A stretch of 64,000 nt of DNA from Clostridia bacterium (lineage in GTDB: Bacteria; Bacillota; Clostridia; Oscillospirales; Acutalibacteraceae), in NCBI GenBank assembly GCA_017549285.1, contig JAFYVE010000027.1:1-64000 (forward strand), in the 5' to 3' direction. Of this stretch, positions 981 to 61,964 are shown piece after piece. Under the pieces are notes generated by a model. It worked only from the letters and a program-made list of their open reading frames with translations. It made no database searches and was not told where the DNA came from. How positions within the stretch are numbered: the stretch's first letter is position 1; every line of letters starts with the position of its first letter. Both the position numbers and the translations under genes were made by a program.

Positions 981-1901
981 GTGAATATATTGCATATGAA
1001 GTATGCGGTTGAAGTTGCCAGAGCCGGCTCTCTCAATAAGGCGGCAGAAACACTTCTTATTGCCGCACCCAATGTCAGCCGTTCGATAAAGGAGCTTGAA
1101 GCTGATATTGGTATTTCAATTTTTGAACGTACTGCAAAGGGAATGGAGCTTACTCCCGAAGGTGAAGAATTCATAAATTATGCAAAAGGTATTCTGCGTC
1201 AGATTGAAGAAGTGGAAAACCTTTATAAAAAAGATTCTGCAAGAAAACAGAAGTTTTCTATTTCGGTACCCCGTGCTTGTTATATTTCCGAAGCATTTTC
1301 ACAGTTTTCAAAGTCTCTCACAAAAGATGCAGCGGAAATCTTCTATAAAGAAACCAATTCTCAGCGCACAATTCAGTATATGCTTGAACACGATTATAAA
1401 CTCGGTATTATAAGATATGCTGAAAATTACGATAAGTATTTCAAACAGATGCTTGATGAAAAAGGCTTCACTTATGAAATGGTCACGGAGTTTTCATATT
1501 CACTCATAATGAGTGCCGGAAATCCTCTTGCAGAAAAAGAAAATATTACATTTGAAGACCTGACCGGGTATATCGAAATTGCTCACGCAGACCCGTATGT
1601 GCCCTCAATGCCCCTTGCAAAAGTAGTAAAGGAAGAACTTCCCGATAATATTGACCGTCGTATATTTATTTTTGAAAGAGCAAGTCAGTTTGATCTGCTT
1701 TCAAATAACCCCGAAACATTTATGTGGGTTTCTTCTGCACCTGAAAGTATTCTGAAACGATATAATCTTGTTCAGAAGAAATGCGTTGATAACAAGAAGA
1801 TTTATAAGGATGTCCTTATTTATAAAAAAGGATATAAATTAACAAAACTTGACAGACAGTTTATAACAGAACTCTGTGAAGCAAAGAGAAAATATCTGTA
1901 G
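981..1901 (+). CDS. LysR family transcriptional regulator
   Basis: A 306-residue LysR-type regulator. The N-terminal winged helix-turn-helix spans about residues 6-65 (MKYAVEVARAGSLNKAAETL...NVSRSIKELEADIGISIFERTAKGMELTPEGEEF), followed by a periplasmic-binding-protein-like effector domain. The effector domain is divergent and the ligand cannot be guessed. The start is taken as GTG 981 with GGTGA upstream; ATG 996 is an alternative. The gene is divergent from sigK, with its own promoter at 917-945. It is followed 98 bp later by a membrane S-component gene with its own promoter, so it may regulate that gene, but no operator could be identified. Confidence 0.85.
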   Translation: MNILHMKYAVEVARAGSLNKAAETLLIAAPNVSRSIKELEADIGISIFERTAKGMELTPEGEEFINYAKGILRQIEEVENLYKKDSARKQKFSISVPRACYISEAFSQFSKSLTKDAAEIFYKETNSQRTIQYMLEHDYKLGIIRYAENYDKYFKQMLDEKGFTYEMVTEFSYSLIMSAGNPLAEKENITFEDLTGYIEIAHADPYVPSMPLAKVVKEELPDNIDRRIFIFERASQFDLLSNNPETFMWVSSAPESILKRYNLVQKKCVDNKKIYKDVLIYKKGYKLTKLDRQFITELCEAKRKYL

Positions 1902-1998: not shown

Positions 1999-2535
1999 AT
2001 GAAGAATAAAAAAATTTATAAAATTGTACTTTCGGCATTATTTATGACTCTTGCCTATGTTCTGCCGTTTCTTACAGGTCAGATTCCCGAGATAGGGGCA
2101 ATGCTGTGCCCGATGCATCTGCCCGTACTTCTGTGCGGATTCATCTGCGGATGGGGGTGGGGACTTGCGGTCGGTTTTATTGCACCGTTATTCCGTTCTC
2201 TCACACTCGGAATGCCGCTTCTTTTTCCTACAGCACTGTGTATGGCGTTTGAACTTGCTGCTTACGGTGTTGTTTCAGGGCTTATGCATAAGTTTCTTCC
2301 CCTCAAAAAGCCATTTATCTACATATCATTGATTGTTTCAATGATAGCAGGCAGACTTGTATGGGGTGTTGCAATGTTTGTGTGTATGGGCATAAACGGA
2401 GGCGCTTTCACTTTCTCCGCATTTCTTGCAGGGGCATTCACAAATGCCGTTCCCGGCATAATTCTGCAGATTGTACTTATTCCTGTGCTTGTTATGATTA
2501 TTGATAACCCCAAAGTTATAAAAAACAGAGATTGA
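1999..2535 (+). CDS. ECF transporter S-component-like membrane protein
   Basis: A 178-residue, very hydrophobic protein with about five to six transmembrane segments and the character of energy-coupling-factor substrate-binding subunits: an N-terminal KIVLSALFMTLAYVLPF helix, then IPEIGAMLCPMHLPVLLCGFICG and the GLAVGFIAPLFRSLTLGMP stretch. Such S components bind a vitamin or micronutrient and dock onto shared EcfAA'T modules encoded elsewhere. The substrate is unknown, and no riboswitch is visible in the 5' leader to hint at it. The start ATG at 1999 follows AAGGAAGG. No ATPase or T-component gene is adjacent. Confidence 0.65.
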   Translation: MKNKKIYKIVLSALFMTLAYVLPFLTGQIPEIGAMLCPMHLPVLLCGFICGWGWGLAVGFIAPLFRSLTLGMPLLFPTALCMAFELAAYGVVSGLMHKFLPLKKPFIYISLIVSMIAGRLVWGVAMFVCMGINGGAFTFSAFLAGAFTNAVPGIILQIVLIPVLVMIIDNPKVIKNRD

Positions 2536-2689: not shown

Positions 2690-2711
2690 GTATTATCGAT
2701 AATGATAATAC
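2690..2711. promoter_or_regulatory. 22-bp dyad upstream of rex, candidate operator
   Basis: Perfect 8-bp inverted repeat GTATTATC-N6-GATAATAC; the centre also forms the 12-bp palindrome ATTATCGATAAT. A possible -10 element TATAAT lies just downstream at 2718-2723. The GATAAT hexamers recall Fur-family boxes, but the arrangement is not the classical one. Confidence 0.4.
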
Positions 2712-2749
2712 CGATTATATAATTTAAGAATTCCAAAAACGGTGACGAT

Positions 2750-2767
2750 TTGTTAAAATGTTAACGA
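2750..2767. promoter_or_regulatory. Rex operator upstream of rex-adhE
   Basis: TTGTTAA-AATG-TTAACGA matches the clostridial Rex consensus TTGTTAA-N4-TTAACAA at all but one arm position. It lies 24 bp before the rex start and downstream of the likely -10 element, which fits NADH-responsive autoregulation of the whole rex-adhE-hydrogenase unit. Confidence 0.75.
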
Positions 2768-2790
2768 AGTAGGACAGAGGAGGTTTTCTT

Positions 2791-3411
2791 ATGTGCAGAA
2801 ACGGCATTTCAAAAGCAACACTCAGTAGAATACCCGTGTATCTTGAGTTGCTCAGAAGTCTGCCCGAAGAAAGATATGAGCACATCTCGGCAACATCAAT
2901 TGCAAGAAAACTTTCACTCGGTGAAGTTCAGGTCAGAAAAGACCTTGCATCAATAAGCGGTGCGGGAAAACCGAAACTCGGTTATGTAACGGCAGAGCTT
3001 ATTGAAAACCTTGAAAATTGTCTGGGCAGTGATAACCTCACTTCTGCAGTTCTTGTGGGAGCAGGTAAACTGGGGAAGGCACTTCTTGATTACGATGAGT
3101 TTGAAAAATTCGGCATCAGAATTGCAGCAGCATTTGACAGCAACAATAAAGTTCTTAACATCAATTCAAGAATCAGCATTCAGCCCATAGATAAATTTGA
3201 AAATATCTGCAGAAACAACGATATAAAACTCGGCATAATAACAGTCGGTGCAGGGTCAGCTCAGGCAGTATGTGACAAAATGGTTGAATGCGGAATAGTC
3301 GGCATTCTGAATTTTGCTCCCTGCAATCTGAATGTGCCCGCAGGGGTAATTCTTAAAAATGAAAACATTGCGCTTTCACTGGCGCATTTAAATAATCAAA
3401 TAAGCAAATAA
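2791..3411 (+). CDS. rex: Redox-sensing transcriptional repressor Rex
   Basis: A 206-residue Rex repressor, which senses the NADH/NAD+ ratio and derepresses fermentation genes when NADH rises. The N-terminal winged helix (ATLSRIPVYLELLRSL...ISATSIARKLSLGEVQVRKDLASIS) precedes a Rossmann fold with the dinucleotide-binding glycine motif VLVGAGKLGKAL at about residues 88-99, and the conserved GIVGILNFAP near 170. An AGAGGAGG ribosome binding site precedes ATG 2791. Only 27 bp separate rex from adhE, with no terminator, so the two are very likely co-transcribed. The Rex operator at 2750-2767 suggests autorepression. Length is typical of the family. Confidence 0.93.
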   Translation: MCRNGISKATLSRIPVYLELLRSLPEERYEHISATSIARKLSLGEVQVRKDLASISGAGKPKLGYVTAELIENLENCLGSDNLTSAVLVGAGKLGKALLDYDEFEKFGIRIAAAFDSNNKVLNINSRISIQPIDKFENICRNNDIKLGIITVGAGSAQAVCDKMVECGIVGILNFAPCNLNVPAGVILKNENIALSLAHLNNQISK

Positions 3412-3438
3412 TCAATACAATTATTCAGGAGGATACAA

Positions 3439-6141
3439 ATGGAAACAAAAAATTACGCAATTGTAGATAGCGTTGAAAAACTTCAGGAAGCTATCGCAAA
3501 CACAAGAGAAGCTCAGCAGAAGTTTGCTACCTACACACAGGAACAGGTTGATAAGATTTTCCTTGCAGCAGCATCTGCAGCAAACAAGGCAAGAATTTCA
3601 CTTGCTAAAATGGCTGTAGCAGAAACAGGCATGGGCGTTGTTGAAGATAAGGTTATCAAGAACAACTATGCTGCAGAATATATTTACAATGCATACAAGG
3701 ACACAAAGACTTGCGGCGTTATCGAAGAAGACAAGGCTTTCGGCATCAAGAAAGTTGCTGAGCCCATCGGTGTTATCGCAGCTGTTATTCCCACAACAAA
3801 CCCCACATCAACAGCAATCTTTAAGTGCCTTATCGCTCTCAAGACACGTAATGCAATCATCATTTCTCCTCATCCCAGAGCAAAGAACTCAACAATCGCA
3901 GCAGCTAAGCTCGTTCTTGAAGCTGCAGTTGCAGCAGGTGCTCCCGAAGGAATCATCGACTGGATCGACGTTCCTTCACTCGAAATGACAAACACAGTTA
4001 TGAAGGAAGCAGACATCATCCTTGCAACAGGTGGTCCCGGTATGGTTAAGGCTGCATACTCAAGCGGTAAGCCCGCTCTCGGTGTTGGTGCAGGTAATAC
4101 ACCCGCAATCATCGACGACAGTGCAGACATCCTTCTTGCTGTCAACTCAATCATTCATTCAAAGACATTTGATAACGGTATGATCTGTGCTTCAGAACAG
4201 TCTGTTATCGTTCTTGATACAATCTATGACGCAGTAAAGAGTGAATTCGCAGCAAGAGGCTGTTACTTCCTCAAGCCTGCTGAAATCGAAAAAGTAAGAA
4301 AGACAATCATTATCAACGGCGCTCTCAATGCTAAGATCGTTGGTCAGCCCGCTGCAAAGATTGCTGAACTTGCAGGCGTTACAGTACCCGCAGGCACAAA
4401 AATCCTTATCGGTGAAGTTGAAAGTGTTGACATCAGCGAAGAATTCGCTCACGAAAAGCTTTCTCCTGTTCTTGCTATGTACAAGGCTCCCGATTTCGAA
4501 GATGCTCTCTGCAAGGCAGAACACCTTGTTGCTGACGGCGGTTACGGTCATACATCTTCTGTTTACCTCAACGAAGTAACAGAAGCAGAAAAGCTTGCAG
4601 CTTTCTCAGCAAGAATGAAGACCTGCCGTATCCTTGTAAACACACCCTCATCACACGGTGGTATCGGTGACCTTTACAACTTCAAGCTCGCTCCCTCACT
4701 TACACTTGGTTGCGGTTCATGGGGCGGCAACTCAGTTTCAGAAAACGTTGGTGTAAAACACCTTATCAATATCAAGACAGTAGCAGAAAGAAGGGAAAAT
4801 ATGCTCTGGTTCCGCGCACCTGAAAAGGTATACATTAAGAAAGGATGCTTACCTGTTGCTCTTGATGAGCTCCGTACAGTACGTGGCGCTAAGAAAGCAT
4901 TTATCGTAACAGATACATTCCTTTATCAGAACGGCTACACAAAGCCCATCACAGACAAGCTTGACGAAATGGGCATCGCTCACACAACATTCTTCAATGT
5001 TCAGCCCGACCCCACACTCGGCAACGCTAAGGAAGGCGCAGCTCAGATGAGAGCTTTCCAGCCCGACACAATCATTGCTCTCGGCGGCGGTTCAGCAATG
5101 GACGCAGCAAAGATTATGTGGGTTATGTACGAACATCCCGATGCAGACTTTATGGATATGGCTATGAGATTCATCGATATCCGTAAGAGAGTATACACAT
5201 TCCCCAAGATGGGTGAAAAGGCATACTTCATCGCTGTTCCCACATCAGCAGGTACAGGTTCAGAAGTTACACCCTTCGCAGTTATCACAGACGAAACAAC
5301 AGGCGTTAAGTATCCTCTTGCTGACTACGAACTTCTTCCCAATATGGCAATCATTGATACTGATTTCCATATGTCAGCTCCCAAGGGTCTTACAGCTGCA
5401 TCAGGTATCGACGCTGTAACACACGCAGTTGAAGCTTATGCTGCAATGCTTGCAACAGATTACACAGACGGTCTTGCTCTCCAGGCTCTCAAGAACATCT
5501 TCAAGTTCCTTCCCAGAGCATACGAAAACGGTCAGACAGACGTTGAAGCAAGAGAAAAGATGGCTAACGCTGCTACAATGGCAGGTATGGCATTCGCAAA
5601 CGCATTCCTTGGCATCTGTCACTCAATGGCTCATAAGCTCGGTGCTTTCCATCACCTTCCTCACGGTGTAGCTAATGCTCTTATGATAGAAGAAGTTCTC
5701 AGATTCAACGCTTCAGAAGCTCCCGTAAAGATGGGTACATTCTCACAGTATGACCATCCCCACACTCTTGCACGTTATGCAGAAATTGCTGATTACCTCG
5801 GTCTCGGCGGTGAAACTGATAAAGAAAAGCTTGAAAACCTTATCAAGGCTATCAATGACCTCAAGGCTAAGGTCGGCATCAAGGAAACAATCAAAGATTA
5901 CGGCATTGATGAAAAGGTATTCCTTGACAACCTTGACGAAATGGTTGAACAGGCATTCGACGACCAGTGTACAGGTGCTAACCCCAGATATCCTCTTATG
6001 AGCGAACTCAAGCAGATGTATCTCAACGCTTACTATGGCAAGCACTTTGTAGAGCCCGATATGCCCACAGCAGCTGATATCGAAGAAGGCGCAAAGGTTG
6101 ACGAAGTAAAAGTAACATACCGCAAAGGTAAGAAGGCATAA
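3439..6141 (+). CDS. adhE: Bifunctional acetaldehyde/alcohol dehydrogenase AdhE
   Basis: A 900-residue AdhE that reduces acetyl-CoA to ethanol via acetaldehyde, oxidising two NADH; it usually forms cytosolic spirosome filaments. The N-terminal aldehyde dehydrogenase domain (about 1-450) carries the catalytic Cys250 in GMICASEQS and the GAGNTP motif. The C-terminal iron-dependent alcohol dehydrogenase domain (about 460-870) has GGGSAMDAAK, TSAGTGSEVTPFAV and the metal-binding histidines in GICHSMAHKLGAFHHLPHG. AGGAGG precedes ATG 3439. Codon use is strongly biased (AAG, ATC, AAC, GTT), a sign of very high expression shared with the next two genes. It forms the second gene of the Rex-controlled unit and is the main electron sink opposite the hydrogenases downstream. 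Confidence 0.95.
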   Translation: METKNYAIVDSVEKLQEAIANTREAQQKFATYTQEQVDKIFLAAASAANKARISLAKMAVAETGMGVVEDKVIKNNYAAEYIYNAYKDTKTCGVIEEDKAFGIKKVAEPIGVIAAVIPTTNPTSTAIFKCLIALKTRNAIIISPHPRAKNSTIAAAKLVLEAAVAAGAPEGIIDWIDVPSLEMTNTVMKEADIILATGGPGMVKAAYSSGKPALGVGAGNTPAIIDDSADILLAVNSIIHSKTFDNGMICASEQSVIVLDTIYDAVKSEFAARGCYFLKPAEIEKVRKTIIINGALNAKIVGQPAAKIAELAGVTVPAGTKILIGEVESVDISEEFAHEKLSPVLAMYKAPDFEDALCKAEHLVADGGYGHTSSVYLNEVTEAEKLAAFSARMKTCRILVNTPSSHGGIGDLYNFKLAPSLTLGCGSWGGNSVSENVGVKHLINIKTVAERRENMLWFRAPEKVYIKKGCLPVALDELRTVRGAKKAFIVTDTFLYQNGYTKPITDKLDEMGIAHTTFFNVQPDPTLGNAKEGAAQMRAFQPDTIIALGGGSAMDAAKIMWVMYEHPDADFMDMAMRFIDIRKRVYTFPKMGEKAYFIAVPTSAGTGSEVTPFAVITDETTGVKYPLADYELLPNMAIIDTDFHMSAPKGLTAASGIDAVTHAVEAYAAMLATDYTDGLALQALKNIFKFLPRAYENGQTDVEAREKMANAATMAGMAFANAFLGICHSMAHKLGAFHHLPHGVANALMIEEVLRFNASEAPVKMGTFSQYDHPHTLARYAEIADYLGLGGETDKEKLENLIKAINDLKAKVGIKETIKDYGIDEKVFLDNLDEMVEQAFDDQCTGANPRYPLMSELKQMYLNAYYGKHFVEPDMPTAADIEEGAKVDEVKVTYRKGKKA

Positions 6142-6159
6142 TCAAGGGAGGAAATCACA

Positions 6160-6909
6160 ATGAAACTTGACAGAGTTATAGCAGTAAGAAATAACAAGAC
6201 TATCTACCGTGACGGTGATAAGTGCGTTAAGGTTTTTAACGAAGATTATTCAAAGGCAGACGTTCTCAACGAGGCTCTCAATCAGGCCCGTATCGAAGAA
6301 ACAGGTCTTAACATCCCCAAGGTTCTTGAAGTTACAATGGTAGACGGCAAATGGGCTATCGTTTCAGAATACATCAAGGGCAAGACTCTCCAGCAGCTTA
6401 TGGATGAAGACGTAGAAAAGAAGGATGAATACATCGAAATGCTCGTTGACATCCAGCTTGGCATCCACAGCAAGGAATGTGCTCTTCTCAACAAGCTCAA
6501 GGATAAGATGAACAGAAAAATCGGCATGAGTGAGCTTGATGCAACAACACGTTACGACCTTCACACACGTCTTGAAGGTATGCCCAAGCACAAGAAGGTT
6601 TGTCACGGTGACCTCAACCCCTCAAACGTTATTATTGCAGAAGACGGCACACCCTATATCCTTGACTGGGCACATGCTACTCAGGGTAATGCATCAGCTG
6701 ATGCTGCAAGAACATACCTCCTCTTCTGGCTTCACGGCGACATCGAAGGTGCAAAGACATATCTTGATATGTTCTGCAAAAAGAGCAACACAGCTAAGCA
6801 GTATGTTCAGAAGTGGATGCCCATCGTTGCAGCTTCTCAGTCAGTAAAGGGCAACGAAAAAGAAAGAGAATTCCTTCTTTCATGGGTTGATGTTGTAGAT
6901 TACGAATAA
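6160..6909 (+). CDS. APH-fold kinase of the hydrogenase/adhE cluster
   Basis: A 249-residue protein of the aminoglycoside-phosphotransferase/choline-kinase-like fold. The catalytic Brenner motif HGDLNPSN is at residues 149-156, and the metal-binding aspartate in ILDWAH is at 169. The N-terminal lobe has the short KCVKVF lysine strand and VSEYIKGKTLQQL hinge. The equivalent gene in the Ruminococcus albus hydS-hydA2 unit was annotated as a serine/threonine protein kinase, and a phosphatase of the PP2C type is encoded in the same cluster here, so protein phosphorylation is a reasonable idea. The fold alone equally allows a small-molecule substrate. It lies 18 bp after adhE and shares adhE's high-expression codon bias, unusual for a pure regulator. 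Target unknown. Confidence 0.75.
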   Translation: MKLDRVIAVRNNKTIYRDGDKCVKVFNEDYSKADVLNEALNQARIEETGLNIPKVLEVTMVDGKWAIVSEYIKGKTLQQLMDEDVEKKDEYIEMLVDIQLGIHSKECALLNKLKDKMNRKIGMSELDATTRYDLHTRLEGMPKHKKVCHGDLNPSNVIIAEDGTPYILDWAHATQGNASADAARTYLLFWLHGDIEGAKTYLDMFCKKSNTAKQYVQKWMPIVAASQSVKGNEKEREFLLSWVDVVDYE

Positions 6910-6929
6910 TCAGATAGGAGTCACTAATT

Positions 6930-7169
6930 ATGAAAATCACAGTTTGTATCGGTTCTTCATGTCATATCAAGGGTTCACGTCAGGTAGTTGAACAGCTCCA
7001 GTATCTTATCGCAGAAAACAAGCTTGGTGATAAGGTTGAACTCGGCGGCACATTCTGTATGGGCAAATGTCAGCAGGGTGTATGCGTAACAGTAGATAAC
7101 GATTTCTATTCAGTTACTCCCGAAACAGTTGAAGAATTTTTCAATAACAACGTAAAAGGAAAGGTATAA
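6930..7169 (+). CDS. Thioredoxin-like [2Fe-2S] ferredoxin, copy 1
   Basis: A 79-residue protein of the thioredoxin-like [2Fe-2S] ferredoxin family (NuoE C-terminal/HymA-like). The four ligands are visible as CIGSSC (Cys6, Cys11) and CMGKC (Cys43, Cys47). These proteins pass electrons between NAD(P)H-linked flavoproteins and hydrogenases, or act as free-standing electron carriers. No NuoF-like flavoprotein is encoded nearby, so its partner is unclear; the two flanking hydrogenase genes make a role in electron supply to or from HydS or HydA2 plausible. TAGGAG precedes ATG 6930. Codon use is adhE-like. The next gene is a diverged tandem copy. Confidence 0.8.
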   Translation: MKITVCIGSSCHIKGSRQVVEQLQYLIAENKLGDKVELGGTFCMGKCQQGVCVTVDNDFYSVTPETVEEFFNNNVKGKV

Positions 7170-7170
7170 T

Positions 7171-7419
7171 ATGCTGATTCAGGTTTGCGTAGGAAGCTCA
7201 TGCCACATCAAGGGATCACCCGAGATTGTGGAGCTTCTTCAGAAAGCCGTCAGTGATTATCATCTCGAAGAAGAAATTACACTTGCCGGCAGTTTTTGTA
7301 TCGGCAAGTGTAACCGCATTGGTGTAACTGTTCAGGTAGATGATGATATTCACACCGGCATAACAAAAGAAAATTTCAAAGAATTCTTTCAGGATAATGT
7401 CTTGAACAAGTTAAAGTGA
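7171..7419 (+). CDS. Thioredoxin-like [2Fe-2S] ferredoxin, copy 2
   Basis: An 82-residue paralogue of the preceding gene with the same cysteine pattern (CVGSSCHIKGSPE and CIGKC), starting 2 bp after its stop codon. The two share the CxGSSCHIKGS segment and the GxFCxGKC segment, pointing to tandem duplication. Codon use is less biased than in copy 1, so the copies have diverged in expression level or age. It probably carries one [2Fe-2S] cluster and serves as electron carrier or docking subunit for the hydrogenase gene that begins 16 bp later. A pairing of one copy with HydS and one with HydA2 is an inference only. Confidence 0.78.
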   Translation: MLIQVCVGSSCHIKGSPEIVELLQKAVSDYHLEEEITLAGSFCIGKCNRIGVTVQVDDDIHTGITKENFKEFFQDNVLNKLK

Positions 7420-7435
7420 AAGGAAGCGGCAGTCA

Positions 7436-9115
7436 ATGGCTAATTGTCTGACTCTCAAAAAATCAAACTGCAAGAATTGCTATAAATGTATCCGCCATTG
7501 TCCCGTAAAGGCAATACGTTTTTCAGGCAATCAGGCTCATATTATAGGTAATGAATGTATTCTCTGCGGACAGTGTTTCGTTGTCTGCCCTCAGAACGCA
7601 AAGGAAATCGTTGATGAAACAGAGAAGGTAAAAGTTCTTCTTCAGTCAGGTGACCCGGTTATTGTTTCTCTTGCACCTTCATTTATTGCGAACTATGACG
7701 GCGTAGGTATCAACTCAATGAGAAAAGCCCTCAAAAAACTCGGCTTTTACGATGTTGAAGAAACAGCAATCGGTGCAACAATAGTCAAGAATGAATATGA
7801 AAGAATGATTGCTGAAGAAGAAAGAGATGTCATCATTTCTTCATGTTGTCATTCAATTAATCTTCTTATCCAGAAGCATTACCCCTCAGCGCTTCCTTAT
7901 CTTGCTGATGTTGTTTCACCTATGCAGGCACACTGCAACGATATAAAACAGCGTTTTCCTAAGGCAAAAACTGTATTCGTCGGACCTTGCGTTGCAAAAA
8001 AGGATGAGGCAGAGCATTATGCGGGTATTGTTGACGCCGTACTTACTTTTGAAGAGCTTACAGAGTGGCTCAAATTCGAAAATATCGAACTTGAACAGGA
8101 AATAGATAATGATATCTGTTCACGTGCAAGATTTTTCCCTACAACGGGCGGTGTGCTCAAGACTATGGCTCAGGAGAATACAGGATTTTCATATCTTGCT
8201 CTTGACGGTGTTGAAAACTGTATCGCAGCCCTCAAGGATATTGAAAGCGGTAAAATCCACAATTGTTTCATTGAAATGTCTGCCTGCGTAGGCAGTTGTA
8301 TGGGCGGTCCGGTTATGGAAAAATACCACCATACGGAAACAGTCAGAGATTATATCACAATCACAAAATATGCAGGTGCAAAGGACTTTGAGGTTTCTCA
8401 GCCCAAAACAATTCAGCTCAAGAAGCATTTTGAATTCATCGAACAGCGTTCACCTCAGCCCTCTGAGTATGAAATTAACAATGTTCTCCGTCAGATGGGT
8501 AAATTCAAGCCCTCTCAGGAGCTCAACTGCGGTTCCTGCGGATATAACACCTGCCGTGAGAAGGCTGTTGCCATCATTCAGGGCAAGGCAGAAATCTCAA
8601 TGTGTCTTCCTTTCCTCAAGGATAAGGCAGAAAGCTTTTCAGATACTATCGTAAACAGTTCTCCCAACGGACTTATTGTTCTCAATGATCAGCTTGAAGT
8701 TCAGCAGATCAATAAATCTGCAAGGGATATTATGAATATCCGTTATGCTTCCGATGTTCTCGGAACTCAGGTTATAAGAATCCTTGATCCCGCCCCTTTT
8801 ATGAAAGTCCGTGATACGGGAATGGGTATTTACAACGAGCGTGTATATTTTGCGGAATACAAGCGTTATGTTGAACAGACAATCGTTTATGACCGTGATT
8901 CAAGACTTCTTGTCGGCATTCTCCGTGATATTACTGATGAACAGCACGAAAGAGAAAAGAAAGAAAACATCAGCAGACAGACTGTTGAGGTAGCCGATAA
9001 GGTTGTTGAAAAACAGATGCGTATCGTTCAGGAAATCGCTTCGCTTCTCGGTGAAACAGCCGCTGAAACAAAAATTGCTCTTGCAAAGCTGAAGGAGTCA
9101 ATTACCAATGAATGA
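7436..9115 (+). CDS. hydS: Sensory-type [FeFe] hydrogenase with PAS domain, HydS
   Basis: A 559-residue [FeFe]-hydrogenase-like protein with a C-terminal PAS domain. Two N-terminal 4Fe-4S motifs (Cys12/15/18/22 and 41/44/47/51) feed an H-cluster domain with altered signatures: L1 SSCCHS (Cys137-138, His where catalytic enzymes have Pro), L2 GPCVAKK (Cys185) and L3 SACVGSCMGGP (Cys284, Cys288). All four cluster-ligating cysteines are kept. A further four-cysteine 4Fe-4S motif (365, 368, 373, 390; CGSCGYNTC type) leads into PAS (about 400-500) and a helical, probably coiled-coil tail. This is the architecture of group C, putative H2-sensing hydrogenases. The phosphatase gene starts 8 bp inside its 3' end, which implies translational coupling and a shared signalling role. 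Output mechanism unknown. Confidence 0.88.
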   Translation: MANCLTLKKSNCKNCYKCIRHCPVKAIRFSGNQAHIIGNECILCGQCFVVCPQNAKEIVDETEKVKVLLQSGDPVIVSLAPSFIANYDGVGINSMRKALKKLGFYDVEETAIGATIVKNEYERMIAEEERDVIISSCCHSINLLIQKHYPSALPYLADVVSPMQAHCNDIKQRFPKAKTVFVGPCVAKKDEAEHYAGIVDAVLTFEELTEWLKFENIELEQEIDNDICSRARFFPTTGGVLKTMAQENTGFSYLALDGVENCIAALKDIESGKIHNCFIEMSACVGSCMGGPVMEKYHHTETVRDYITITKYAGAKDFEVSQPKTIQLKKHFEFIEQRSPQPSEYEINNVLRQMGKFKPSQELNCGSCGYNTCREKAVAIIQGKAEISMCLPFLKDKAESFSDTIVNSSPNGLIVLNDQLEVQQINKSARDIMNIRYASDVLGTQVIRILDPAPFMKVRDTGMGIYNERVYFAEYKRYVEQTIVYDRDSRLLVGILRDITDEQHEREKKENISRQTVEVADKVVEKQMRIVQEIASLLGETAAETKIALAKLKESITNE

Positions 9116-10280
9116 TTTATGTGCTGATATCGGATATAAAAGTATAAATCATCACGGTGAAGAGCTTTGCGGAGACCACGTTGATATAGTTGAGCCGAGT
9201 GATGAGTCTACTGTTATTGTGCTGTCAGACGGTCTCGGAAGTGGTGTAAAAGCAAGTATTCTCTCTACTCTTACATCAAAAATTATATCAACAATGCTCG
9301 CAGAAGGATTGTCACTTGAAGAATGTGTTGAAACAATTGCAGCAACTCTGCCCGTTTGTTCTGTCAGAGGCGTTGCATATTCAACATTCACAATCATTCA
9401 CCTCAAAAACAATCAGACTGCTGAGCTTATTCAGTACGATAATCCTCACGCGATTATTATCCGTGATGAAAAAAACTGGGATTACCCCAAAACAGAAATG
9501 AATATCGGCGGTAAGAAGATATTCAAATCTGTTATAAATCTTCAGGAAAATGACGTATTCGTTGCGATGAGTGACGGGTGTCCCCACGCAGGAATCGGTA
9601 TTTCCTATAATTTCGGCTGGAAAAGGGAAGACATAATCGATTTTATCGAAACTCTTATTCCTGCCGGCTACACAGCAAAAACACTTTCAACAATGCTTGT
9701 TGATGAATGTGATAAACTTTATGGTCACAAGCCGGGTGACGATGCTACAGCCTGCGTTGTCAGAATCAGAAAGAGAGTGCCGATGAATATGCTCTTCGGT
9801 CCTCCCTCAAACCGTGACGATGCAGACAGAATGATGTCTCTCTTCTTCTCCAAAGAAGGCAAACACATCATCTGCGGCGGTACAACATCATCAATTGCTG
9901 CAAAATTCTTAAGAAAGCCGCTCAAACCTACTCTGAATTTCGAGCAGAGTGATGTTCCGCCTATTGCTGAGCTTGAGGGGGTTGACCTCGTAACAGAAGG
10001 CGTTATCACAGTCAACAAAGTGGTTGAATATGCTGAGGACTACCTCGGTGAAAACATATTTTATGAGCATTGGAGCTTCAAGAAAGACGGTGCGTCACTT
10101 ATATGCCGTCTGCTGTTTGAAGAGGCAACCGATATTAATTTCTATGTCGGACGTGCAATCAACCCTGCTCATCAGAATCCTGACCTGCCCATTAACTTCA
10201 ATATCAAAATGAATCTTGTTACAGAGCTTTCAAAGTCTCTGAAAAAAATGGGTAAGAGGATTAAAGTAAGTTATTTCTAA
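9108..10280 (+). CDS. PP2C/SpoIIE-type protein phosphatase
   Basis: A 390-residue serine/threonine phosphatase of the PP2C/SpoIIE family. The metal-binding aspartates are visible in VLSDGLGSG (Asp41), the MSDGC segment (about 155) and GDDATACVV (about 210). The last 170 residues (from about NMLFGPP) form an additional domain that I do not recognise. These enzymes usually reverse protein phosphorylation in switches controlling anti-anti-sigma or other regulators. The start overlaps hydS by 8 bp, so the two are translationally coupled. Together with the APH-fold kinase upstream it could form an opposing pair read out by HydS, but the substrate is not evident. It is followed by hydA2 after 12 bp. 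Confidence 0.82.
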   Translation: MNDLCADIGYKSINHHGEELCGDHVDIVEPSDESTVIVLSDGLGSGVKASILSTLTSKIISTMLAEGLSLEECVETIAATLPVCSVRGVAYSTFTIIHLKNNQTAELIQYDNPHAIIIRDEKNWDYPKTEMNIGGKKIFKSVINLQENDVFVAMSDGCPHAGIGISYNFGWKREDIIDFIETLIPAGYTAKTLSTMLVDECDKLYGHKPGDDATACVVRIRKRVPMNMLFGPPSNRDDADRMMSLFFSKEGKHIICGGTTSSIAAKFLRKPLKPTLNFEQSDVPPIAELEGVDLVTEGVITVNKVVEYAEDYLGENIFYEHWSFKKDGASLICRLLFEEATDINFYVGRAINPAHQNPDLPINFNIKMNLVTELSKSLKKMGKRIKVSYF

Positions 10281-10292
10281 GGAGTGTTCAAT

Positions 10293-11714
10293 ATGAGAAA
10301 ATTTGATACCAAAGTTCAGTATCTTAAATATAAAGTTCTGCGTCAGGTAGCTCACGAGGCATGGAATGACACGCTTCTTCAGAATCTTATTGACATTCCC
10401 CAGCAGATTGTTCCCGGAAAAACATCAACAATGCGTTGCTGCGTTTATAAAGAACGTGCAATCCTTGGAGAACGTGTTAAGCTTGCTATGGGCGGTGACA
10501 AAGAAAACCCAAATGTTATTGAGGTCATCGATATTGCTTGTGACGAATGTCCTGCCGCAGGTTATGAAGTAACTGATTCCTGCCGTGGCTGTCTTGCTCA
10601 CAGATGTGAAGATGTTTGTAAGCGTGGTGCAATTTCATTTGACCACAACCACGTGGCACATATTGACAAGTCAAAGTGTGTTGAATGCGGTCAGTGTGCA
10701 AAGGTCTGTCCCTTTGCTGCTATCGTCAATCGCAAGCGTCCCTGTCAGATTGCATGTAAGGTAAAGGCAATCTCGATCAATGACGACAATGCTGCTAAAA
10801 TTGACAACGACAAGTGTATTCAGTGTGGTGCATGTGTATATCAGTGTCCCTTCGGTGCAATCAGCGATAAATCATATATCCTTAATGTTATTGATATACT
10901 TAAAAAAAGTCAGAACAATGAAAATTATAAGGTTTATGCTGTTGTTGCTCCCTCAATTTCAAGTCAGTTTACCTATGCAAAGCTCGGTCAGGTAATCACA
11001 GGTCTTAAAAAGCTCGGATTCTATACTGTTGTTGAAGCGGCTCTCGGTGCAGATATGGTTGCTATGAGTGAAGCCAAGGAACTTTCAGAAAAGGAATTCC
11101 TTACAAGCTCCTGTTGCCCTGCATTCGTTCAGTATATCAAGTCTGCATTCCCCTCACTCGTTCCTTATATTTCACATAACCTGTCACCTATGGCTATGCT
11201 CGCAAAATATATCAAGGAAACAAGTGAAAATGCAAAAGTTGTATTCATAGGACCCTGTACTGCAAAGAAAGCAGAAGCACAGCTTGAAACAGTCAAGCCC
11301 TATGTTGATGCTGTTCTTACATTTGAAGAGCTTCAGGCACTTTATGACAGCAAGGATATTGATATTACAACTCTTTCTGAAGATGTTCTTGACAATGCAT
11401 CATATTTCGGCAGAATCTTTGCCCGTTCAGGCGGTCTGTCAGATGCAGTCGTTCAGGCTCTCACCGAACAGAAAATAGAATTCAATGTAAAACCTGCAGT
11501 ATGCGACGGCATTGAAGCCTGCAAAGTTGCTCTTCTCAAAAAGAGCAAGAATGTTCTTGATGCAAACTTTATTGAAGGTATGGCTTGTACAGGCGGATGT
11601 ATTGGTGGTGCAGGATGTCTTACACACGGTGAAAAGAACAAATCAGAAGTTGACAAATATGGCAAAGAAGCTCTTGAAAAAACAATCAGTGATGCCGTAT
11701 CGGTTCTTAAATAA
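10293..11714 (+). CDS. hydA2: [FeFe] hydrogenase, catalytic type, HydA2
   Basis: A 473-residue [FeFe] hydrogenase, expected to make or use H2 with ferredoxin in the cytosol. The N-terminal part is cysteine-rich (Cys49-50, 83, 86, 97, 100, 105, 109). Two 4Fe-4S ferredoxin motifs follow (CVECGQCAKVCP, 129-139; CIQCGACVYQCP, 175-185). H-cluster motifs are L1 TSSCCPAF (Cys274-275), L2 GPCTAKK (Cys322) and L3 MACTGGCIGGAGC (Cys432, 436), with all four ligands present. The ATG at 10293 has GGAG eight bases upstream; a GTG nine bases earlier lies inside that site. This is the last gene of the Rex-controlled unit, followed by a terminator. The family resembles the non-bifurcating, ferredoxin-dependent HydA2 of Ruminococcus albus. 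Confidence 0.9.
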   Translation: MRKFDTKVQYLKYKVLRQVAHEAWNDTLLQNLIDIPQQIVPGKTSTMRCCVYKERAILGERVKLAMGGDKENPNVIEVIDIACDECPAAGYEVTDSCRGCLAHRCEDVCKRGAISFDHNHVAHIDKSKCVECGQCAKVCPFAAIVNRKRPCQIACKVKAISINDDNAAKIDNDKCIQCGACVYQCPFGAISDKSYILNVIDILKKSQNNENYKVYAVVAPSISSQFTYAKLGQVITGLKKLGFYTVVEAALGADMVAMSEAKELSEKEFLTSSCCPAFVQYIKSAFPSLVPYISHNLSPMAMLAKYIKETSENAKVVFIGPCTAKKAEAQLETVKPYVDAVLTFEELQALYDSKDIDITTLSEDVLDNASYFGRIFARSGGLSDAVVQALTEQKIEFNVKPAVCDGIEACKVALLKKSKNVLDANFIEGMACTGGCIGGAGCLTHGEKNKSEVDKYGKEALEKTISDAVSVLK

Positions 11715-11753
11715 TAAAGACTTCTTTTTTTATACTTTATCTTTCCAATCAAT

Positions 11754-11793
11754 ACAGAAACCGACGGGGTAAACGTCGGTTTCTGTGTTTTTA
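11754..11793 (+). terminator. Terminator of the rex-adhE-hydrogenase unit
   Basis: A perfect 13-bp stem ACAGAAACCGACG / CGTCGGTTTCTGT with a 7-base loop, followed by GTTTTTAT. It closes the run of genes from rex to hydA2. Confidence 0.9.
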
Positions 11794-61763: not shown

Positions 61764-61923
61764 ATATCGCTGGTGCGATATGATATACGGCATTGCTGTA
61801 TGATATACTTGCTATGCAAGCATGATATAATATCCGTTCCTTCATATGCCGTAGGCATATATCATCCACCGAAGGTGGGTATCATATCGAAGATATATCA
61901 CCCGTTCTGAGAGGAACGGATAT
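61764..61923. repeat. Hairpin array near tRNA-Ser, possible structured RNA
   Basis: Hairpins ATATCGC-TGGT-GCGATAT, ATACGGCA/TGCTGTAT, CTTGC-TAT-GCAAG, then an 11-bp outer stem ATATCCGTTCC (61830-61840) / GGAACGGATAT (61913-61923) enclosing ATATGCC-GTA-GGCATAT, CCACC-GAA-GGTGG and ATATC-GAA-GATAT. Linkers of ATATCA type recall the array at 26169-26323. No gene. Confidence 0.65.
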
Positions 61924-61927
61924 CATT

Positions 61928-61964
61928 GAAAACACCCTCATTGTATCACAATGAGGGTGTTTTC
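61928..61964 (-). terminator. Terminator of tRNA-Ser
   Basis: Long perfect stem with arms GAAAACACCCTCATTGT and its complement, 3-base loop, TTTTC tail on the minus strand. Confidence 0.88.

What the first reader, a model, noticed from the sequence alone, without database searches (positions are those of the whole stretch)
2750..11793. Rex-controlled H2/ethanol switch with sensory hydrogenase, kinase and phosphatase in one unit
Eight genes from rex to hydA2 plus the kinase run without an internal terminator. They combine a redox repressor, the ethanol sink (AdhE), a PAS-bearing [FeFe] hydrogenase with altered L1 motif, an APH-fold kinase, a PP2C phosphatase and a catalytic hydrogenase. The layout suggests a circuit in which H2 (via HydS) and NADH (via Rex) set the split between ethanol and H2. 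I recall the same gene set as one transcription unit in Ruminococcus albus 7, so the cluster is not new, but the phosphorylation target and HydS output are undescribed as far as I know.
Basis: partly seen in the sequence, partly recalled or inferred. Interest (0 to 1): 0.75.

Follow-up and report, generated by a model that had tools for sequence, protein, structure and literature searches.

The report
Hydrogen-ethanol switch operon with overlooked LysR
A gut bacterium's operon for making ethanol and hydrogen is the one already known from Ruminococcus albus, but it sits beside an overlooked DNA-binding regulator whose likely binding site and gene partners recur in many relatives, giving a testable answer to how such bacteria might switch between hydrogen and ethanol.

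Summary
The operon is real: rex, adhE, APH-fold kinase, two [2Fe-2S] ferredoxins, hydS, SpoIIE-type phosphatase, hydA2, terminator. Gene order is identical on R. albus 7 plasmid pRUMAL01, so the cluster is known.

(1) A LysR regulator upstream (981-1901) was missed. A conserved 44-bp element (2690-2733) abuts the inferred -35; the Rex operator (2750-2767) covers the inferred -10. The element was recovered in 33 of 34 LysR-bearing loci; R. albus has it but no Rex operator. In an order-wide sample, LysR relatives stand before alcohol dehydrogenase, rex, nfnAB-like, mdh or hydS-module genes in 47 of 72 loci.

(2) HydS's constant partners are ferredoxin, phosphatase and HydA2, not the kinase. Stand-alone HydS carries a C-terminal tail (like KQM..[14 protein letters not shown]) and has the phosphatase gene next to it in 25 of 25 distant loci examined; 5 of 5 HydS fused to activator domains lack the tail.

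(3) The kinase follows AdhE in 22 of 23 LysR loci, also in genomes with no detected phosphatase.

Best reading: LysR activates, Rex vetoes at the -10, HydS gates the phosphatase through its tail. LysR's inducer and the phosphatase's substrate are unknown.

The parts
981..1901 (+). LysR-type transcriptional regulator (306 aa), proposed activator of the operon
1999..2535 (+). ECF-transporter S-component-like gene lying between lysR and the operon in this genome
   Evidence: Pfam ECF_trnsprt 57.7 bits; in most relatives lysR ends about 130-300 bp before the first operon gene, here 892 bp
2690..2733 (+). conserved promoter element, proposed LysR binding site (half-sites GTTATATCG-N13-CGATATAAC in the best-matching relatives)
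   Evidence: PWM score 44.9; leave-cluster-out 42.2 against a maximum of 2.7 in 30 shuffles; 28-base core occurs once in the own genome at <=3 mismatches
2731..2736 (+). inferred -35 hexamer TTCCAA, weak
   Evidence: 17-bp spacer to the -10; TTCCCA-like in the relatives
2750..2767 (+). Rex operator TTGTTAAAATGTTAACGA
   Evidence: 13 of 13 specified bases; one of two exact sites in the 2.3-Mb genome
2751..2759 (+). inferred extended -10, TGTTAAAAT (hexamer TAAAAT 2754-2759), inside the Rex operator
   Evidence: TG present in 30 of 33 loci, offset 25-26 in 32 of 33
2791..3411 (+). rex, redox-sensing repressor
   Evidence: NCBIfam NF003994 228 bits, cut-off 130
3439..6141 (+). adhE, bifunctional acetaldehyde/alcohol dehydrogenase
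   Evidence: NF010378 1395 bits, cut-off 951
6160..6909 (+). APH/RIO-fold kinase with HGDxNPSN and DW motifs
   Evidence: Pfam APH 49.2 bits, RIO1 38.8; motifs conserved in the alignment of 49
6930..7169 (+). thioredoxin-like [2Fe-2S] ferredoxin 1
   Evidence: PF01257 35.6 bits
7171..7419 (+). thioredoxin-like [2Fe-2S] ferredoxin 2
   Evidence: PF01257 35.4 bits
7436..9115 (+). hydS, PAS-type sensory [FeFe]-hydrogenase
   Evidence: Fe_hyd_lg_C 171.7 bits, FeS 43.2, PAS 16.9 below cut-off
8972..9112 (+). C-terminal tail of HydS ([21 protein letters not shown]...), proposed phosphatase-docking helix
   Evidence: tail match 53.8 bits; phosphatase next to tail-bearing HydS in 15 of 15 and 10 of 10 distant loci, tail absent in 5 of 5 fused HydS
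9108..10280 (+). SpoIIE/PP2C phosphatase
   Evidence: PF07228 54.2 bits; DGLGSG, SDG and GDD motifs; 8-nt overlap with hydS
9780..10277 (+). C-terminal domain of the phosphatase, no Pfam match, highly conserved
   Evidence: 0 families; 94 of its 166 positions invariant in the alignment of 39, against 98 of 224 in the catalytic part (my count)
10293..11714 (+). hydA2, catalytic monomeric [FeFe]-hydrogenase, group B1
   Evidence: TIGR04105 571 bits, cut-off 450
11751..11789 (+). intrinsic terminator (16-pair stem)

Best explanation
The unit joins two modules. An electron-sink module (LysR, Rex, AdhE, APH kinase) is switched at one promoter: LysR binds the 2690-2733 element and recruits polymerase to a weak -35 (inferred), while Rex, freed of NADH, sits on the extended -10 and blocks it (operator shown, action from known Rex biology). 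An H2 module (two ferredoxins, HydS, phosphatase, HydA2) is carried on the same presumed transcript. HydS senses H2 or redox state at its H-cluster and passes it through its C-terminal FeS and PAS region to a conserved tail helix, and this tail controls the separately encoded PP2C phosphatase, much as coiled-coil linkers control RsbU and RsbP (inferred by analogy). High NADH and high H2 thus favour ethanol plus ferredoxin-dependent H2 release; low H2 lets the operon fall silent. The inducer of LysR and the phosphatase's substrate are not known; the kinase belongs with AdhE.
For: Element recovered at the same site by leave-cluster-out in 33 of 33 LysR-bearing loci (L014 and L071 score only 2.0 and 1.2, though above their 30 shuffles), with a 34th, L030, a miss, and scoring under 0 in 18 of 20 loci without LysR. 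Promoter spacing constant in 32 of 33. 13 further LysR loci on contigs outside the matrix set score over 15. LysR relatives precede sink or hydS-module genes on the same strand within 1.2 kb in 47 of 72 loci of an order-wide sample, against 1 of 72 downstream on the opposite strand and 11 of 72 upstream; the class of gene behind LysR changes at least 34 times over the tree. PP2C beside HydS in 71 of 73 close loci, both exceptions keeping it elsewhere in the genome, and in 25 of 25 distant loci examined. Published: 111-fold change in R. albus co-culture; more adhE transcript and ethanol in hfsA/hfsB deletions.
Against: No binding, transcript or phosphorylation data were available for this organism. 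The promoter is inferred from conservation; the consensus scan did not pick it and lists other candidates nearby (e.g. 2696-2723, 10 of 12), in numbers no higher than in shuffles (25 against 25.6). LysR has its own ligand-binding domain and occurs in genomes with no detected phosphatase (12 of 19 examined), so HydS cannot be its only input. In T. saccharolyticum loss of HfsA or HfsB raises adhE while loss of HfsC or HfsD does not, so HydS may act negatively there and not simply through the phosphatase. Two loci without a LysR in view (L046, L067) carry the element; 4 of 21 loci with a close LysR score under 15. 25 of 72 order-wide LysR loci have no gene of the set within 1.2 kb. The tail as docking site rests on co-occurrence alone; the structure job for the phosphatase was not accepted.
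Confidence: 0.58

Rival explanations
1. Rex alone sets transcription: NADH lifts Rex from the -10 and the whole operon follows; LysR is a bystander and HydS acts after transcription.
For: Perfect Rex operator on the inferred -10 here; rex is the first gene; operator at 12 of 13 bases or better in 10 of 14 LysR loci whose operon lacks rex.
Against: R. albus, where the 111-fold change was seen, shows no operator within 300 bp (best 9 of 13 bases) but has the LysR element; operator in only 6 of 19 loci with rex in the operon.
Confidence: 0.2
2. HydS signals to LysR by phosphorylation: the APH kinase phosphorylates LysR (or AdhE) and the HydS-gated phosphatase removes it.
For: lysR, adhE, kinase and phosphatase genes lie together in 23 of 37 well-covered hydS loci; kinase and phosphatase motifs intact.
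Against: Kinase absent (E<=1e-20) from 16 of 20 hydS genomes or records examined, 18 of them chosen for lacking it at the locus; kinase-AdhE-LysR in genomes with no detected phosphatase, e.g. 4 at 96-99% completeness; no target shown.
Confidence: 0.15
3. LysR senses a metabolite of over-reduction and alone explains the switch; HydS and the phosphatase tune hydrogenase or AdhE activity and do not touch transcription.
For: Canonical LTTR ligand domain; LysR-sink loci in genomes without detected phosphatase.
Against: hfsA/hfsB deletions in a relative change adhE transcript two- to threefold; LysR-hydS neighbours in two distant families, L293 and L298, suggest a link.
Confidence: 0.25

Closest known systems
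Ruminococcus albus 7 rex-adhE-hydS-hydA2 operon (pRUMAL01; Zheng 2014 known only through citing papers; PMC6776011 passages)
   Same: Identical order LysR-rex-adhE-APH-2Fe2S-2Fe2S-hydS-SpoIIE-hydA2; HydS 70%, LysR 64%, phosphatase 80% identical
   Different: The window has a perfect Rex operator on the inferred -10 (not found in R. albus) and an ECF-type gene between lysR and rex; LysR is not mentioned in the passages read
hfsABCD of Thermoanaerobacterium (PMC5707799, PMC11837493, PMC13277313, passages)
   Same: HfsB corresponds to HydS, HfsC to the phosphatase, HfsD to HydA2, per those papers; affects ethanol against H2
   Different: Not examined here at sequence level; described as a four-gene operon, without adhE, rex, kinase or LysR
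RsbU/RsbP PP2C phosphatases gated by coiled-coil linkers (PMC12143880, abstract and passages)
   Same: Sensor (PAS in RsbP) controlling a PP2C domain through a helix
   Different: Here sensor and phosphatase are separate proteins from overlapping genes, and the tail was seen only on HydS; a likeness of working, no membership claimed
Sensory [FeFe]-hydrogenase TmHydS (group C; PMC10055695, PMC8163306, passages)
   Same: N-terminal FeS, H-domain, C-terminal Cx2Cx4Cx16C, PAS region
   Different: Keeps the proton-relay cysteine that is alanine in TmHydS

Membership tests
R. albus-type hydS-hydA2 operon | gene content and order | tested here: met
   identical order
R. albus-type hydS-hydA2 operon | single H2-responsive transcript | not testable with these tools
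   needs RNA data from this organism
Group C sensory [FeFe]-hydrogenase (HydS) | H-domain plus C-terminal Cx2Cx4Cx16C FeS motif | tested here: met
   Fe_hyd_lg_C 171.7 and FeS 43.2 bits; motif read in the sequence, definition from PMC8163306
Group C sensory [FeFe]-hydrogenase (HydS) | PAS domain | tested here: inconclusive
   16.9 bits against cut-off 22.6; PAS over cut-off in the fused homologue L286
Group C sensory [FeFe]-hydrogenase (HydS) | H2 sensing | not testable with these tools
   needs biochemistry
Group B1 [FeFe]-hydrogenase (HydA2) | TIGR04105 over curated cut-off | tested here: met
   571 vs 450 bits
LysR-type regulator | LysR winged-helix domain | tested here: met
   PF00126 64.8 vs 26.6 bits
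LysR-type regulator | two-lobe effector domain | tested here: met
LysR-type regulator | binds the conserved promoter element | not testable with these tools
   co-occurrence only
Rex repressor | Rex equivalog and its operator | tested here: met
   228 vs 130 bits; operator 2750-2767
SpoIIE-type PP2C phosphatase | catalytic domain with metal-binding Asp motifs | tested here: met
   PF07228 54.2 vs 25 bits; DGxGSG, SDG and GDD invariant
Ser/Thr protein kinase | Pfam Pkinase domain over cut-off | tested here: not met
   Pkinase 26.2 vs 31.7 bits; APH 49.2 vs 23.2 and RIO1 38.8 vs 22 met. Filed as APH/RIO-fold kinase; substrate unknown

The most novel reading that the evidence does not exclude
The LysR protein founds an undescribed family of regulators that switch fermentative electron sinks (AdhE, Fe- and Zn-alcohol dehydrogenases, NfnAB, malate dehydrogenase-fumarase, HydA2) across this bacterial order, and HydS with its trans-acting tail makes an H2-gated protein phosphatase; together, not Rex alone, they decide between ethanol and H2 during interspecies hydrogen transfer.
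Probability: 0.42. Interest if true: 0.78.

Novelty: new member of a known kind. Interest (0 to 1): 0.58.

Why it matters
How a fermenter notices that a neighbour removes its H2 and turns from ethanol to acetate is an old question of rumen and gut ecology. The cluster was known; a LysR as its DNA-binding step did not turn up in the searches (open-licence PMC only, listings and a few passages; the key R. albus paper is not held, so it may say more). A candidate regulator, a 44-bp site, a promoter with two inputs and a defined tail on HydS open that question to simple gel-shift, deletion and pull-down tests, and bear on methane mitigation and ethanol engineering.

Tried and rejected
Fixed consensus GTTATATCG-N13-CGATATAAC as the only test of the element: too strict for the window's own clade (W best 12 of 18 and not at the element, not above shuffles; 20 of 33 LysR loci reach 13); replaced by an aligned matrix with leave-cluster-out scoring. 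Locus L030 was at first misassigned to the group without LysR (two adhE-like hits); in the LysR group it counts as a miss (-12.1).

Genome-wide Rex regulon: sites with up to 2 mismatches (65+67) are fewer than those of the reversed control pattern (115+102), so the near-match in front of hydABC (own contig C17:281-298) is not evidence. The second exact site (C13:29491) lies inside a 494-aa ORF that I did not examine further.

Riboswitch or structured leader: no Rfam match. Kinase as a protein kinase of LysR or AdhE: no support beyond gene neighbourhood. Phosphatase C-terminal domain: no Pfam family; in PDB only weak sequence matches (best 3trj, E 0.17). HydS tail as a docking module on other sensors: every tail-bearing ORF that I inspected (15, 10) was a HydS; most of the other hits were not opened. 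HydS-sigma-54 fusions as a novelty: a 2019 survey already lists Fe_hyd_lg_C domains in such activators (PMC6615313, passages).

Full report
What is there. The stretch 2750-11793 holds rex, adhE, an APH/RIO-fold kinase, two thioredoxin-like [2Fe-2S] ferredoxins, hydS, a SpoIIE-type PP2C phosphatase and hydA2, all on the + strand with gaps of 1-27 nt and one 8-nt overlap (hydS/phosphatase), closed by a 16-pair terminator hairpin at 11751-11789. The eight genes include the kinase. The window lies in a 2.3-Mb, 56-contig, 88% complete genome; the closest loci found are from Clostridia and Oscillospiraceae/Ruminococcaceae assemblies, mostly of ruminant gut.

Known counterpart. R. albus 7 plasmid pRUMAL01 has the same order, including a LysR gene in front: LysR, rex, adhE, phosphotransferase, two 2Fe-2S ferredoxins, hydS, SpoIIE phosphatase, hydA2. 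Published work, read as abstracts or passages, reports a 111-fold drop of this eight-gene cluster in co-culture with an H2 consumer (PMC6776011) and, in T. saccharolyticum, about 1.8-fold ethanol yield and two- to threefold adhE transcript after loss of hfsA or hfsB, but no significant adhE change after loss of hfsC or hfsD (PMC5707799). The original R. albus paper (Zheng 2014) is not held; I know it through citing papers. The cluster is therefore not new.

The promoter element. The intergenic stretches share a 44-bp element directly before the inferred -35. The set was 33 LysR-bearing loci, the window and R. albus among them. With a weight matrix rebuilt each time without loci of over 85% HydS identity, 33 of 33 gave back the same site, scoring 1.2 to 52.1, each above the best of its own 30 shuffles (which never exceeded 5.6); L014 (2.0) and L071 (1.2) are weak. 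A 34th LysR locus, L030, first misassigned, scores -12.1 with the full matrix. Of 20 loci without LysR, 18 score below 0; L046 (51.9) and L067 (15.2) do not. The -10 (TGnTAnAAT) lies at offset 25-26 in 32 of 33 loci, with the TG in 30; the -35 is TTCCCA-like and weak. In the window: element 2690-2733, -35 2731-2736, 17-bp spacer, -10 2754-2759. The plain consensus scan did not pick this promoter; it lists others nearby, in numbers no higher than shuffles. The 28-base core occurs once in the own genome at up to 3 mismatches; a looser core gives one more hit, and its reversed control also gives one. This is the layout expected of an LTTR-activated promoter (general knowledge).

Rex. The Rex operator 2750-2767 matches 13 of 13 specified bases and covers the inferred -10. 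Among the 33 LysR loci, 16 reach 12 of 13 bases: 6 of 19 with rex in the operon and 10 of 14 without (Fisher p 0.037, relatedness not corrected). R. albus reaches 9 of 13. Rex control is thus a variable overlay.

An order-wide test of LysR. In 295 genomes drawn from the order, 74 have a LysR relative at E<=1e-60. I fetched 76 of the 80 non-own places (left out: three cut-off places and one already held). Of 72 with at least 1.2 kb downstream, 47 have a gene of the set rex, adhE, Fe- or Zn-alcohol dehydrogenase, kinase, ferredoxin, hydS, phosphatase, hydA2, nfnA, nfnB, mdh, fumarase starting within 1.2 kb on the same strand; 1 of 72 has one downstream on the opposite strand, and 11 of 72 have one on the upstream side. 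By LysR score: 7 of 7, 9 of 11, 14 of 21, 9 of 17, 8 of 16. One example each of the Fe-ADH, Zn-ADH, mdh and fumarase labels was checked with Pfam; the nfnA and nfnB examples show fitting FeS and flavin domains, and those two names are recalled. The element scores over 15 in 17 of 21 loci with LysR of 400 bits or more and in 1 of 55 below. The same element stands before Fe-ADH (L164, L190), a Zn-ADH (L199) and rex-mdh-fumarase (L147, outside the 76). On a tree of 77 LysR proteins the downstream gene class changes at least 34 times (least possible 5, shuffled mean 44.4), so the shared theme is not one inherited neighbourhood. R. bromii has its LysR before an Fe-ADH, away from hydS, with no clear element (3.2).

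Two modules. The kinase follows adhE in 22 of 23 LysR loci with room to see it. In 19 genomes with LysR and mostly a sink gene but no hydS in the fetched stretch, 12 had no phosphatase at E<=1e-40, eight of them 95-99% complete; gaps in assemblies remain possible. Conversely, 16 of 20 hydS genomes or records, 18 of them picked because the kinase is missing at the locus, had no kinase at E<=1e-20. HydS keeps a ferredoxin in 72 of 72, the phosphatase in 71 of 73 and hydA2 in 57 of 59 loci with room; the kinase in 44 of 62. The two loci without the phosphatase have it elsewhere in the genome (79% identity). adhE and the kinase share a strong codon bias (AAG 0.81 in both; ATC 0.76 and 0.80) that hydS, phosphatase and hydA2 show less (AAG 0.52, 0.29, 0.48).

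The HydS tail. In a phylum sample 114 of 398 genomes have HydS at E<=1e-80. I fetched 20 of the places listed: 15 stand-alone HydS from different genomes (387-791 bits), all with the phosphatase right downstream on the same strand and a tail like [21 protein letters not shown], and 5 long ones (769-900 aa) fused to an AAA+ region, all without the tail. Pfam confirms a sigma-54 activator in the two long ones tested. No phosphatase was seen beside the long ones, but only 0.4-1.7 kb downstream was fetched. A search with a typed tail consensus hit 73 of 249 genomes; ten cases of odd length or from genomes without a strong HydS hit were fetched, and all were HydS with the phosphatase adjacent (L323 is cut by a contig end, L325 is split between frames). 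I propose the tail as the docking and gating helix, by analogy with coiled-coil control of PP2C phosphatases (PMC12143880, abstract and passages). This is inference.

HydS active site. L1 reads SCCHS in at least 97% of 82 aligned sequences, keeping the relay cysteine. L2 GPC and L3 MSAC give Gly and Ser where CpI has two methionines, as reported for TmHydS (PMC8163306; the CpI motif alignment is recalled).

Judgement. Shown: gene content, order, conserved element, constant promoter spacing, co-occurrences. Inferred: LysR binding and activation, Rex veto, tail docking. Unknown: LysR ligand, phosphatase substrate, kinase role, and whether HydS talks to LysR at all.

Noticed in passing
L109 (own genome contig C17) 426-8712: Second hydrogenase cluster: NuoE-like, DRTGG, HATPase, a 421-aa PAS-less sensory-type hydrogenase, PHP protein and HydABC-like genes; a Rex-like site with 2 mismatches at 281-298 is not beyond chance genome-wide.
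   Followed up: partly
L286-L290: HydS-type hydrogenases fused to AAA+ regions (sigma-54 activator by Pfam in L286 and L289): a possible direct H2-responsive transcription factor; domain combination already listed in PMC6615313.
   Followed up: partly
window 10293-11714: HydA2 is group B1 by NCBIfam although the R. albus counterpart is called group A1 in PMC6776011.
   Followed up: no
L036, L062, L147: LysR-rex with malate/lactate dehydrogenase (and fumarase in L036 and L147) downstream, with the promoter element; in L036 and L062 hydS-hydA2 lie in between and the phosphatase stands alone elsewhere in the genome.
   Followed up: partly
L025 and L042: One assembled genome (RGIG8575) carries two hydS loci, one with the full operon and one with ferredoxins, hydS, phosphatase and hydA2.
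   Followed up: no
L041: A contig with this clostridial operon is filed under the archaeon Methanocorpusculum: probably a binning error.
   Followed up: no
window 61854-61928: Gut-1 RNA (Rfam RF01706, 59.7 bits) on the - strand.
   Followed up: no
window 9780-10277: C-terminal half of the phosphatase has no Pfam family but is at least as conserved as the catalytic half.
   Followed up: partly
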